Of a stretch of DNA of 64,000 nucleotides, positions 18,380 through 25,223 are shown in pieces. The stretch is from Molossus alvarezi (taxonomy: Eukaryota; Chordata; Mammalia; Chiroptera; Molossidae). Location of the stretch: the NCBI GenBank assembly GCA_037176705.1, contig CM073893.1, forward strand, positions 20,026,074-20,090,073, written 5' to 3'. Both the position numbers and the translations under genes were made by a program. Numbering within the stretch: the stretch's first letter is position 1; each line of letters starts with the position of its first letter. A model generated the notes under the pieces. The model was given only the letters and a program-made list of their open reading frames with translations. It made no database searches and was not told the origin of the DNA.

Positions 18380-18879
18380 TGTTGTAGCTCACTGTCCTTA
18401 GAATCCAACTTGTCTTTAAGCTGCCCTAATTAACAACCTCAAAGGCAGCAAGACGAACAATGGGGAATGTTATAGAGTGCTTTAGCCCCATAAAAATTAA
18501 CTAGAGTTTGACCTTCACTGGGAATTTGAAAAGCAACATCCTTCAAGAAAAGGGAGGACAGAAACGGCCCCAAGGCCAGAGTGTCCTGCATGCTCTGTGA
18601 AGAAACTGATAGGGAGAAACTGAAGCTCCCTTTACCCCATAAAACTGTAACTGTTCAACATGTGTGTATTGCACCTGACTGACCGCTGATATCTGTCTCG
18701 AATTTGTTAGTTTTTAAACTTTGGATAATGGAATGAATAGCAGGACAGATGTATGCTGACCCAGTTCCCTTTCCCCTCAGCTCCCTCCCCCCTCCGTTCC
18801 CTCCTGCTTATCGCTAACTGCCTCGGCTTCTGTACAAGCAGCTTGCTTGCTCTGCTAAACTCTTGAATGACCCCTGCCC

Positions 18880-18886
18880 TATATAA
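18880..18886 (+). promoter_or_regulatory. TATA box of the 5' LTR
   Basis: 'tatataa' inside 'ccctatataagcaacc', about 75 bp upstream of the LTR poly-A signal. The same motif is present in the 3' LTR near 25,084. Confidence 0.8.
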
Positions 18887-18955
18887 GCAACCCTCCCCCT
18901 GAGCTCGGGGCTGCAGTTCTCCTCTGTGTAGGTTGGCTGCAGTCCCTGCGCAGGT

Positions 18956-18961
18956 AATAAA
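18956..18961 (+). terminator. Poly-A signal of the 5' LTR
   Basis: AATAAA in 'caggtaataaaacatcc', near the R/U5 boundary. The copy in the 3' LTR would end the proviral transcript. Confidence 0.75.
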
Positions 18962-19021
18962 ACATCCCCAAAAACTGAAAAATGGAGTCTGAGTGTGGTC
19001 GATCTCCTGGGTTACAACATT

Positions 19022-19039
19022 TGGAGGCCCCAGCGAGAT
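19022..19039 (+). promoter_or_regulatory. Primer binding site, tRNA-Gln type
   Basis: The 18 bases 'tggaggccccagcgagat' begin two bases after the LTR. They match the complement of the 3' end of mammalian tRNA-Gln at 16 of 18 positions, by my recall of that tRNA. Site for priming minus-strand DNA. Confidence 0.8.
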
Positions 19040-19177
19040 CAGCCGCGAGGTCCCCCTTTTCCGTGGGGTCGACCTCCTCAGACTACGCGGAGGGCTGCCT
19101 CCTCGCCCTCCGCACCTACATTCGTTCTGGCTTTGATTCGGCTAATTCGGACTAAGACTTCAGCCTCGAGGATCTGG

Positions 19178-19183
19178 GTAAGG
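19178..19183 (+). promoter_or_regulatory. Candidate major splice donor in the ERV leader
   Basis: 'ctggGTAAGG' downstream of the primer site, a good donor and the usual place for the retroviral donor that makes env mRNA. Function is inferred. Confidence 0.4.
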
Positions 19184-19301
19184 GATTTCCCCTTCCATCT
19201 GTTTTCTGTTCGGTAGCTCCGGAGCGTTCTGGGATTGTTGCGGGCGGGACGCCGCTCAACCGCACTTCCCCCTCAGGGTCGGGACGCCGACTCCTGACCT
19301 G

Positions 19302-22374: not shown

Positions 22375-22565
22375 AATAGGGGATAAACTAGTTAGTTTCC
22401 TAATAGACACTGGTGCAGCAGACTCAGTCTTGACCGAGCCAATGGGGCCCTAACCTACCCCTGGACTTCAAAGAGGAATATAGACCTTGGGGAAAATACT
22501 GTAACTCATTTGTTTCTGTTCCTGCTGGAGTGCCCATACCCCCTACTTGGACGTGATCTCCTCCA
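22375..22565 (+). pseudogene. pro: ERV protease remnant (pro)
   Basis: Codes for FLIDTGAADSVLT, with the catalytic DTG at 22,406-22,414, the usual aspartic-protease active site that cleaves Gag-Pol. The frame stops (TAA, 22,450). Another frame then carries the C-terminal CPYPLLGRDLL near 22,531-22,563. At least one frame change, so no functional protease. Confidence 0.85.
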
Positions 22566-22930
22566 GAGATCATTTAATTGATGGCCACTGCCACTCCAAG
22601 CCAGACCCCGCATCAAGTTCCACAAGACATTGGACATCAATCCTGCCAGCCTGCCTCCAGATGATGACCCGGAGTAACCTCTGCAGGACGGCCTGGAGGC
22701 AATCGACACTGCGGACGGCCGCCCAGACCTCAGGGATGACCCACTGCCATCATCAGATGAGGTATTGCTCATAGACGGGAGCAACTATGTCCAGGAAGAT
22801 ATCAGGTATGCCGGGGCAACAATAGTAACTCTGGACCATGTCATTAAGTAGGGGAACTTCAGCCGGATGGACTGAACTCATAGCCCTAATCCAGGCTCTC
22901 TGATGAGACAAGGGGAAACCATGCTGCAAA
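22566..22930 (+). pseudogene. pol: ERV RNase H remnant, with reverse transcriptase deleted
   Basis: About 190 bp after the protease end the text already reads the RT connection/RNase H border. RNase H words follow: a first catalytic Asp in 'LIDGSNYVQED' (Asp codon 22,774), then 'RYAGATIVT' and a 'GWTELIALIQAL'-type helix in shifted frames. The RT fingers, palm and YxDD box are missing, a deletion of more than 1 kb compared with a gammaretroviral pol. RNase H removes the RNA strand of the hybrid; this copy cannot. Confidence 0.85.
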
Positions 22931-23089
22931 TAAGGAAGATCAACATATAGTCCTAAAACCAGTGGGAACCTCTCCAGATATCAGTTACCACACCAAACCC
23001 AAGTTCACCTCTGACTCCTACTTACACTGGGTCAGAAAATGACTTAACTGAGCAGAAACAAGTCATAAAGAAAATCAACGAATAATAGA

Positions 23090-24010
23090 CACTGCCTGCT
23101 GGGAGATTGTTGGTCCCAGAGGCTCTAGGTCGGACTTTAGTCAACCAGCTACACCAGCCTACCCTCTTAGGTTACACCAAGCTTACTAAACTCCAATAAG
23201 GTCACAGGGAAAAGGAAAATATAGAAGGAAGCAGGAATATATAGGTCTAAATAGGGAGGAAAAGAAAAAGGCTAGGGGATATGCAGACAGCAGATAGATT
23301 GAGCAACCTCTCAGGTTCATGTCAGGGGAGCGACTAGAAAAGTCACAGAGAGTCTATGTAAGTTGAAGAAGGATTATGCAGAGAAAATAAAAAGATAGGA
23401 AGAAGAAAGATAGGGGCATACATATTACAGGAAGACAGGACAATAGAGGATTACTCAGGAAGGGAAGAAGATAAGACACTGAGAGGGGAGAACTTACCCC
23501 TACTAATAGAATAATAGTCTAGGATGCAATAAAGGGAATAACAGGTTTAGGCTACTCCTTACCCTTAGATCAGACAATGACCCCGCCTTGATAGCAAAGA
23601 TATCACAGGATATCTCTAAGGGATTAAATATAAATTAGAAGCTCCATTGTGCTTACTGCCCACAGAGTTCCAGGCAGGTAGAGCGCATGAACAGGACCTT
23701 AAAGGAAACCTTAACCAAATTTACTTTAGAAACCGGTGAAAACTGGACCACTCTGCTCCCCTCGCCCTGTTACAGTTCTTACAGGCCCTGCAGTCTGCCC
23801 AGAAGGCCATCCATAAACACATCTGCGATGCCCTGCCTGTGCCCACCTCAGACTCTGTGCACCCTTTCCAGCCAGGGACTCGATGCAAATAAAGAAATTC
23901 ACCATCCAAGGACTAACTCTGGCCTGGAAGGGACCATACACTGTCATCCTGCCTTCACCAATGGCTATCAAGGTCAACGGCATCCCGGTCTAGCTACATC
24001 ATTCCTGGTT
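23090..24010 (+). pseudogene. pol: ERV integrase remnant
   Basis: The N-terminal His-Cys region is hinted at by 'LVNQLHQPTLLGYTK' (23,130-23,190). A purine-rich stretch (about 23,215-23,560) replaces the first part of the catalytic core. From 23,566 the core resumes ('DNDPALIAK', 'KLHCAYCPQSSRQVERMN' with the third catalytic acid). The C-terminal GPYTV motif is at about 23,931-23,945. Stops and frame changes interrupt it. The 134-codon frame at 23,687-24,091 is only a piece of this. Confidence 0.88.
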
Positions 24011-24057
24011 GAAGGCAGAAAAAGCAGAATGAACGGTGCAGACCTCTCCAGATCCCT

Positions 24058-24500
24058 TAAAATGAGACTCTTACGTTTATCGGGACTCTAATTTTTCTGA
24101 TTATAACTGTACAGGGGAATCTTTATAGATCTAGACCCCAGTAGAACTGGGTACTTAGAAATAAAACATTTTTTAAAAATCTTAAAAAATGTCAACCAGA
24201 AGAGGGTCTTTATGCAGCCTTAGGTGAAACCTGCTATTTCTATGCCAACCATTCAGGTATAATCAGACAGAGCATCCAAATTCTAAGACAAAAAAACTAA
24301 GAAAAGGAGAACAGGTCTCCCATAATTATTATGAAAACTTATTTAATTAGTCACCATAGCAAACATCCCTGATTTCAGCTATAACAGGGCCCCTACTGTT
24401 ATTATTAATCGGAATAACTTGTAAACCCATCCTAAATTTAATAGACTCCTAGCCTTCATCAGAGAGAGAGTCTAATCAGTAAAACTTAGAGTCTTAGCAC
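24058..24500 (+). pseudogene. env: ERV env remnant: leader-like start and transmembrane subunit tail
   Basis: A short ATG frame at about 24,061 is followed within about 130 bp by transmembrane-subunit sequence: 'GLYAALGETCYFYANHSG' (24,205-24,260) and a membrane span 'GPLLLLLIGITC' near 24,387-24,423, then a cytoplasmic-tail remnant with stops. The surface subunit is absent. Env would mediate entry; this copy is a non-functional fragment of class I type. Confidence 0.8.
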
Positions 24501-24561
24501 AATCCTACTAGAGATTGTCTCCCCATGACAATTGTGAATCAATGGTTTGATCCACTCTCAA

Positions 24562-24574
24562 GAAAATGGGGGAA
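24562..24574 (+). promoter_or_regulatory. Polypurine tract
   Basis: 'gaaaatgggggaa' directly before the 3' LTR, purine-only but for one T. Primer site for plus-strand DNA. Preserved although the coding regions are not. Confidence 0.8.
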
Positions 24575-25223
24575 TGTTGTAGCTCACTGTCCTTAGAATC
24601 CAACTTGTCTTTAAGCTGCCCTAATTAACAACCTCAAAGGCAGCAAGACGAACAATGGGGAATTTTATAGAGGGCTTTAGCCCCATAAAAATTAACTAGA
24701 GTTTGACCTTCACTGGGAATTTGAAAAGCAACATCCTTCAAGAAAAGGGAGGACAGAAACGGCCCCAAGGCCAGAGTGTCCTGCATGCTCTGTAAAGAAA
24801 CTGATAGGGAGAAACTGAAGCTCCCTTTACCCCATAAAACTGTAACTGTTCAACATGTGTGTATTGCACCTGACTGACCGCTGATATCTGTCTCGAATTT
24901 GTTAGTTTTTAAACTTTGGATAATGGAATGAATAGCAGGACAGATGTATGCTGACCCAGTTCACCCAGTTCCCTTTCCCCTCAGCTCCCTCCCCTCTCCG
25001 TTCCCTCCTGCTTATCGCTAACTGCCTCGGCTTCTGTACAAGCAGCTTGCTTGCTCTGCTAAACTCTTGAATGACCCCTGCCCTATATAAGCAACCCTCC
25101 CCCTGAGCTCGGGGCTGCAGTTCTCCTCTGTGTAGGTTGGCTGCAGTCCCTGCGCAGGTAATAAAACATCCCCAAAAACTGAAAAATGGAGTCTGAGTGT
25201 GGTCGATCTCCTGGGTTACAACA
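24575..25223 (+). mobile_element. ERV 3' LTR (649 bp)
   Basis: Same ends as the 5' LTR. Four substitutions and a 9-bp tandem duplication ('cacccagtt', near 24,962-24,970) are the only differences I find over about 640 bp. Right TSD 'gaagt' at 25,224-25,228. Confidence 0.97.

What the first reader, a model, noticed from the sequence alone, without database searches (positions are those of the whole stretch)
18380..25223. A young ERV with a long-dead interior: probable non-autonomous retroviral element
The two LTRs differ by four substitutions and one 9-bp duplication over about 640 bp, and a 5-bp TSD is intact, so insertion looks recent (about 1-2 million years if the neutral rate is 2-3e-9 per site per year, an assumption). 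The interior lacks reverse transcriptase and Env surface subunit, has stops in gag, protease and integrase, and holds a foreign-looking AT-rich block. That damage is too much to have arisen since insertion. The cis elements needed for copying (LTRs, primer site, leader, polypurine tract) are kept. This is what is expected of an element copied already defective by proteins from another virus or ERV.
Basis: partly seen in the sequence, partly recalled or inferred. Interest (0 to 1): 0.85.

Follow-up and report, generated by a model that had tools for sequence, protein, structure and literature searches.

The report
Bat retrovirus parasite with borrowed machinery
This is one of about a hundred or more copies of a retrovirus-derived element in what looks like a bat genome that lost its own copying enzymes long ago yet kept spreading until recently, very probably by borrowing the proteins of a related virus whose more complete relatives sit in the same genome.

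Summary
Observation confirmed; interpretation supported. Element 18380-25223 has LTRs of 640/649 bp, TSD GAAGT, primer site, polypurine tract and a wrecked, mosaic interior. It is not alone: the protease/RNase H junction left by the RT deletion occurs at 103 places in the same genome (control 0). All 29 other best-scoring junction copies read carry the AT-rich stretch. Stop triplets inside matrix, RNase H and integrase remnants recur in 29/29, 29/29 and 28/28 other copies. Nine other usable LTR pairs date to about 0.6-3.2 My, this one to about 1.2 My. A candidate helper exists: low-copy 8-9-kb proviruses sharing U5 end, primer site, leader, hairpin array and matrix, with open p30 and protease/RT pieces, overlapping ages and 4-5-bp TSDs. 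The interior also holds an antisense class II gag fragment, and the RT deletion is much older than this young subfamily. It works like mouse VL30 or defective bovine ERVK: a non-autonomous ERV mobilised in trans. New member of a known kind. The helper's role is inferred, not shown.

The parts
18375..18379 (.). target site duplication, left copy (GAAGT)
18380..19019 (+). 5' LTR (640 bp); TATA-like at about 18882, AATAAA at about 18956
19022..19039 (+). primer binding site; tRNA-Thr by recall only, not confirmed
   Evidence: sequence; one search gave one genome match to the expected tRNA end, beside a p30 locus
19040..19351 (+). leader; 19020-19300 is 88-90% alike in the candidate helper
19352..19834 (+). 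tandem array of 19- and 20-nt hairpin-forming units; 2-26 of the 19-nt units among 30 loci of the family (lower bounds where the locus ends in the array); also in the candidate helper
19937..20189 (+). gag matrix remnant; in-frame stop at 20090-20092, a stop triplet also in 29 of 29 other copies; 90-91% to candidate helper
20190..22100 (.). block in place of p12/p30; contains the AT-rich stretch (about 20415-21640). One older copy with the same RT deletion lacks 20415-21827
   Evidence: right edge approximate
21670..21930 (-). antisense fragment resembling the capsid C-terminal domain of a class II (betaretrovirus/IAP-type, by recall) gag
   Evidence: 6hwi, E 4e-4; PF19317, E 0.011, below cut-off
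22376..22571 (+). protease remnant, broken frame
22572..22590 (+). junction left by the RT deletion, found at 103 places in the genome
22591..22848 (+). RNase H N-terminal remnant; in-frame stop 22675-22677, a stop triplet also in 29 of 29 other copies
23190..23510 (+). purine-rich stretch between integrase remnants
23510..23993 (+). integrase core and C-terminal remnants; in-frame stop 23636-23638, a stop triplet also in 28 of 28 other copies with letters there
   Evidence: PF18697; weak
24205..24517 (+). env transmembrane-subunit remnant; no surface-subunit piece recognised
24560..24574 (+). polypurine tract
24575..25223 (+). 3' LTR (649 bp)
25224..25228 (.). target site duplication, right copy (GAAGT)

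Best explanation
A copy of a non-autonomous class I (gammaretrovirus-derived) ERV family. The LTR drives a full-length RNA that carries primer site, leader with a hairpin array, and polypurine tract but encodes no working Gag, protease, RT, integrase or Env. That RNA is packaged, reverse transcribed and integrated by proteins made elsewhere. The best candidate source is a low-copy, longer gammaretroviral ERV family in the same genome that shares U5 end, primer site, leader, array and matrix and inserted in the same period. Shown: the multi-copy defective family, shared damage, young insertions, no sign of coding constraint, and the existence and overlapping ages of the candidate helper. Inferred: copying in trans. 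Which family supplied the proteins is less sure (about 0.6 for the named candidate).
For: RT-deletion junction at 103 places, reversed control 0; 40 of 40 scored places (this copy included) span it at 95% or more, and 29 of 29 other junction copies read carry the AT stretch. Stop triplets recur 29/29, 29/29, 28/28; variable sites are even across codon positions (94, 79, 84 of 464 each, p 0.43) and similar in coding remnants and AT block (15-19%). LTR pairs K2P 0.003-0.017 in 9 usable pairs, 8 of 9 with 4-5-bp TSDs; window differences private. Five of 7 other LTR loci look like solo LTRs with TSDs. Private changes lean to plus-strand G>A (112 against 72 C>T, p 0.0014 in one locus set; 102 against 77, p 0.10 in the other, which shares copies with the first), as copying through single-stranded cDNA could give. 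Candidate helper.
Against: No expression, particle or mobilisation data. The candidate helper's U3 and pol are not close to this family's (protease 77% over 43 nt to the helper, best long match 73% over 117 nt to another gamma ERV; env tail 65%), so close kinship covers only the end of U5 to matrix. Only 18 of 150 scored p30 loci (of 1869 candidates) were sampled upstream. The G>A lean is clear in one set only. Not all stops are shared: the one ending the protease piece is private (0 of 29) and the one opening an integrase piece recurs in 17. One matrix piece alone varies unevenly (18, 9, 7 of 61, p 0.024), though with no third-position excess. The window's interior branch in the tree (1.1%) is longer than its LTRs imply (0.3% each), which I put down to unsampled progenitors.
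Confidence: 0.87

Rival explanations
1. A single ordinary provirus that decayed in place, its LTRs kept alike by gene conversion.
For: The LTRs are alike while the interior is badly damaged.
Against: Damage, RT deletion and AT stretch are shared with dozens of loci; the four LTR differences are private and split 2/2.
Confidence: 0.02
2. Copies spread by segmental duplication or as DNA rather than by reverse transcription.
For: Two of 9 other pairs have non-sister LTRs and one of these lacks a TSD, so ectopic recombination occurs; one helper-type locus appears nearly twice, C62 and C68.
Against: 8 of 9 usable pairs have their own TSD at TG...CA ends; 5 of 7 other LTR loci look like solo LTRs with TSDs; the window shows a clean empty site.
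Confidence: 0.04
3. Non-autonomous and mobilised in trans, but by a gammaretrovirus other than the candidate named here: an exogenous virus, or one of the many other gamma ERVs in this genome. (A variant of the best explanation, not exclusive of its main claim.)
For: 150 of 150 scored p30 loci pass the family cut-off and many are open; protease and U3 are not close to the candidate helper.
Against: Of 18 sampled p30 loci only 2, both of the candidate-helper family, match matrix at 90-91%; 15 match at 64-84% and 1 not at all. The two share leader, array, primer site and the last 17 nt of U5; LTR ages of 0.46-3.7 My overlap.
Confidence: 0.3

Closest known systems
VL30 (mouse and rat)
   Same: Two near-identical LTRs, primer site and a similar polypurine tract kept, 4-bp TSDs in 76 of 86, gag/pol full of stops, no env, packaged into MoMLV virions (PMC4859993, passages).
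   Different: Different host; here an antisense class II gag fragment, an AT-rich block and a variable leader hairpin array. No VL30 sequence was compared.
Bovine ERVK[2-1-LTR] D-type/C-type
   Same: Shorter defective class (85%) outnumbers longer competent class (15%); trans-complementation proposed (PMC10924933, passages).
   Different: Class II; new insertions were observed there, not here.
ETn/MusD and deer-mouse non-autonomous ERVKs
   Same: Interior replaced by unrelated sequence, similarity to the autonomous partner kept only in parts (PMC10089650, passages).
   Different: Class II, rodents; this is class I, with the close similarity at the leader end rather than near the 3' LTR.
MLERV1 and FcERV_gamma6
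   Same: Class I ERVs of bats and cats; 29 of 43 cat copies share one env-deletion breakpoint (PMC4643047, passages).
   Different: [quoted passage not shown] relation to this family not tested.

Membership tests
non-autonomous LTR retroelement (VL30-like kind) | multiple independent insertions sharing one defective interior | tested here: met
non-autonomous LTR retroelement (VL30-like kind) | LTRs, primer site and polypurine tract kept | tested here: met
non-autonomous LTR retroelement (VL30-like kind) | no coding capacity, no constraint on remnants among copies | tested here: met
non-autonomous LTR retroelement (VL30-like kind) | RNA packaged and copied by a helper's proteins | not testable with these tools
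   only a candidate helper and overlapping ages
gammaretrovirus-derived (class I) ERV | gamma-type matrix, protease, RNase H, integrase C-terminus | tested here: met
   matrix PDB match weak alone
gammaretrovirus-derived (class I) ERV | 4-bp target duplication | tested here: inconclusive
   mixture of 4 and 5 bp in this family and in the candidate helper
VL30 proper (rodent family) | VL30 LTR and primer sites (mostly Gly, also Pro and Gln, PMC4859993) | not tested
   no VL30 sequence was compared; the primer site looks different by recall

The most novel reading that the evidence does not exclude
A retroviral parasite lineage that outlives its helpers by swapping modules: the RT deletion is old (shared with a copy only 79.5% alike), while U3, the internal foreign block and the leader-to-matrix segment have been exchanged, the last matching a currently young gammaretrovirus at about 90%. 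The expandable leader hairpin array, shared with the candidate helper and varying from 2 to at least 26 units, would be a tunable packaging signal that lets the parasite compete for particles.
Probability: 0.25. Interest if true: 0.75.

Novelty: new member of a known kind. Interest (0 to 1): 0.52.

Why it matters
It gives what looks like a bat example, with dated copies and a candidate helper in one assembly, of a parasite of endogenous retroviruses. That makes two open questions testable from sequence: whether defective copies displace competent ones in bats as proposed in cattle, and how long an RT-less lineage can persist by recombining with successive helpers.

Tried and rejected
Rejected: decay in place with LTR gene conversion; the AT block as an insertion made after this copy integrated, since 29 of 29 other junction copies read carry it (these are the best-scoring ones, and one older copy lacks it). 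By eye no target duplication was seen at the edges of the AT block against the copy lacking it, so its origin stays open. The 9 minus-strand pieces scanned from the block gave no Pfam family over its cut-off, and neither did the 2 plus-strand AT pieces. PDB searches with two integrase pieces gave nothing, nor did one with a second antisense piece. An Rfam scan of the window gave nothing. NCBIfam on 4 antisense pieces gave one hit far below its cut-off. tRNA identity of the primer site: one exact genome match, beside another p30 locus, probably another ERV's primer site; not confirmed. Dropped rows: pair C15:31.63, whose LTRs aligned over only 341 and 187 bases; one locus without letters in integrase (28 instead of 29); in the first codon-position pool the second matrix piece and the overlapping integrase C piece were left out, and one search gives the pool with the matrix piece added. 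In one search only 100 of 103 places are listed. The first projection of loci took minus-strand loci as already turned; it was redone. A pattern search for elements lacking the deletion did not complete and was not pursued.
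Full report
OBSERVATION. The element lies at 18380-25223 on the + strand. Its LTRs are 640 and 649 bp and differ by two transitions, two transversions and one 9-bp length difference; the TSD is GAAGT. Joining the two flanks gives a stretch that aligns without a gap to the neighbouring 131-bp tandem unit, so the window itself holds a picture of the empty site. The primer site begins 3 bases after the 5' LTR and the polypurine tract abuts the 3' LTR.

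INTERIOR. Open pieces were searched separately. Protease matches XMRV-type protease (E 3e-10). An RNase H piece matches XMRV/MLV RNase H (E 1e-6). Pfam names an MLV integrase C-terminus (PF18697). Matrix and integrase-core matches in the PDB are weak (E 0.08 and 0.05), but matrix is supported by 90-91% DNA identity to pieces just upstream of p30 at two other loci. Protease runs into RNase H with only a few bases between: RT is gone. None of 29 pieces scanned with Pfam matched RT or p30. In place of p12 and p30 lies a block that includes a 20-35% G+C stretch and, on the minus strand at about 21670-21930, a fragment like a class II gag capsid C-terminal domain (PDB 6hwi E 4e-4; PF19317 E 0.011, below its cut-off; the class II label is by recall). 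An env transmembrane remnant precedes the polypurine tract. The leader carries a tandem array of hairpin-forming 19- and 20-nt units.

A FAMILY, NOT A RELIC. The window lies in a 2.5-Gb assembly that can be searched; each search scores only its best candidates. The LTR has 40 full-length matches at 97-100%, this copy's two included, and one partial match (1769 first-look candidates). The RT-deletion junction region is matched at 95-100% by 40 of 40 scored places, this copy included (633 candidates). The AT-block query is matched at 96-100% by 40 of 40, one of them from base 45 on (367 candidates). The two go together: 29 of 29 other junction loci read carry 21000-21650. A 35-base pattern across the junction with up to 2 mismatches occurs 103 times, its reversed control 0 times. 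Of 7 other LTR loci examined, 5 look like solo LTRs with TSDs.

DAMAGE PREDATES INSERTION. At the in-frame stops inside the matrix, RNase H and integrase remnants of this copy, a stop triplet is found in 29 of 29, 29 of 29 and 28 of 28 other copies. Other stops that bound open pieces recur in 17 to 29, and one, at the end of the protease piece, is private (0 of 29). Variable sites are spread evenly over codon positions: 94, 79, 84 of 464 each in seven pieces (p 0.43; 76, 70, 77 of 403 in six, p 0.79). One matrix piece alone is uneven (18, 9, 7 of 61; p 0.024) but has no third-position excess. Coding remnants, AT block and purine-rich stretch vary alike (15-19% of sites): no sign of purifying selection during amplification. 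Interior distances between 30 loci are 1.3-4.2%, median 2.6%; the tree is bush-like with short inner branches. The window's own branch there is 1.1%, more than its LTRs imply (0.3% each); unsampled progenitors would explain it.

AGES. Of ten other LTR pairs fetched, nine were usable; K2P is 0.003-0.017, and 0.0063 for the window. At 2.7e-9 per site per year, used for vesper bats in PMC4643047 (passages), this is about 0.6-3.2 My and about 1.2 My (Poisson 95% range 0.3-3.0 My for the window). That rate assumes a vesper bat, which I could not verify. The four window differences are private, two in each LTR, so they most likely arose after insertion. Two of the nine pairs are not sisters in the LTR tree and one of them lacks a TSD: ectopic recombination occurs in the family and their ages are unsafe. 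Private changes lean to G>A on the plus strand in one locus set (112 against 72, p 0.0014) and less so in the other (102 against 77, p 0.10), which shares copies with the first; mild APOBEC3-type editing of cDNA would give this.

CANDIDATE HELPER. A Gag_p30 search scored 150 of 1869 candidates, all over the cut-off, many open. Upstream pieces of 18 of these were fetched; 2 match the window's matrix at 90-91% and the end of its leader at 98%; 15 match at 64-84%, mostly 64-70%, several over short stretches; 1 does not match. These two loci, a third with a 98% alike protease piece and further copies found by LTR form a family with few full-length copies: five pairs of LTRs 8.0-8.7 kb apart among the 40 best LTR matches of 563 candidates. 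Shared with the window family: the last 17 nt of U5 in the two loci aligned and 18 in a third; the primer site, identical in one and with one change in the other; leader 19020-19300 at 88-90% and the hairpin array, whose unit blocks reach 98%; matrix; a similar polypurine tract; and a mixture of 4- and 5-bp TSDs. Not shared: most of U3, and protease, where the match is 77% over 43 nt. Their p30 frames are open (587, 811 and 819 aa), and 333-aa pieces of protease/RT are open in the two loci read. Whole proviruses were not read, so their integrity is not claimed. Four LTR pairs date to 0.46-3.7 My, overlapping the defective family.

MODULAR HISTORY. In one search, 26 of the 100 listed junctions differ from the rest by one shared base. 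Two of these were read in part. One has leader (91%), array and matrix (90%) like the window, an LTR alike only over 18826-19019 (87%), no AT stretch (window 20414 joins 21828), and 86% identity beyond. The other shares 21927-22753 at 79.5%, with a 74-nt stretch of the block in opposite orientation elsewhere; so the 26 need not be one subfamily. The RT deletion is thus far older than the young subfamily, and LTR, block and leader have different histories. I infer repeated recombination; the direction and source of each exchange are not shown.

MECHANISM. Shown: a defective, multi-copy, recently inserted family and a more complete relative of overlapping age that shares the leader, primer site and U5 end. 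Inferred: the RNA is packaged through the shared leader, copied by the helper's RT from the shared primer site, and integrated by its integrase. The hairpin array as the packaging signal is a guess; both partners have it, with 2-26 19-nt units among 30 loci of the family, lower bounds in four loci that may end within it.

KNOWN KIND. Passages of PMC4859993 (VL30), PMC10924933 (bovine ERVK) and PMC10089650 (deer mouse) describe the same kind of system; PMC4643047 (MLERV1) is a bat class I family of another sort. My searches for a bat non-autonomous gammaretroviral family in print showed none in the titles and abstract openings listed; the 2013 Myotis ERV survey (known to me by recall) is not held, so the family may already be catalogued there or in Repbase.

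Noticed in passing
window 12611-17446, minus strand: Long LINE-1-like open pieces (ORF1-like and ORF2-like by eye) close to full length.
   Followed up: no
window 18140-18379 and 25224 onward: GC-rich 131-bp tandem repeat that served as the insertion site.
   Followed up: partly
G000 C62 14522027-14531071 and C68 210140-219242: Two nearly identical helper-type proviruses on different contigs (LTRs 99-100%): haplotig or duplication.
   Followed up: no
G000 C16:71.40 and C63:93.93 copies: LTR pairs that are not sisters, one without TSD: ectopic recombination between copies.
   Followed up: partly
L008 (C1:132748793) and p30 locus C1:132747721: An apparent solo LTR of this family sits about 0.5 kb downstream of another ERV's open p30: probably nested insertion.
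   Followed up: no
G000 C10:80567168-80573444: Junction copy flanked by LTRs that match the helper's R-U5 at 86-87%, closer than the window's LTR (73%): a further LTR variant of the family.
   Followed up: no
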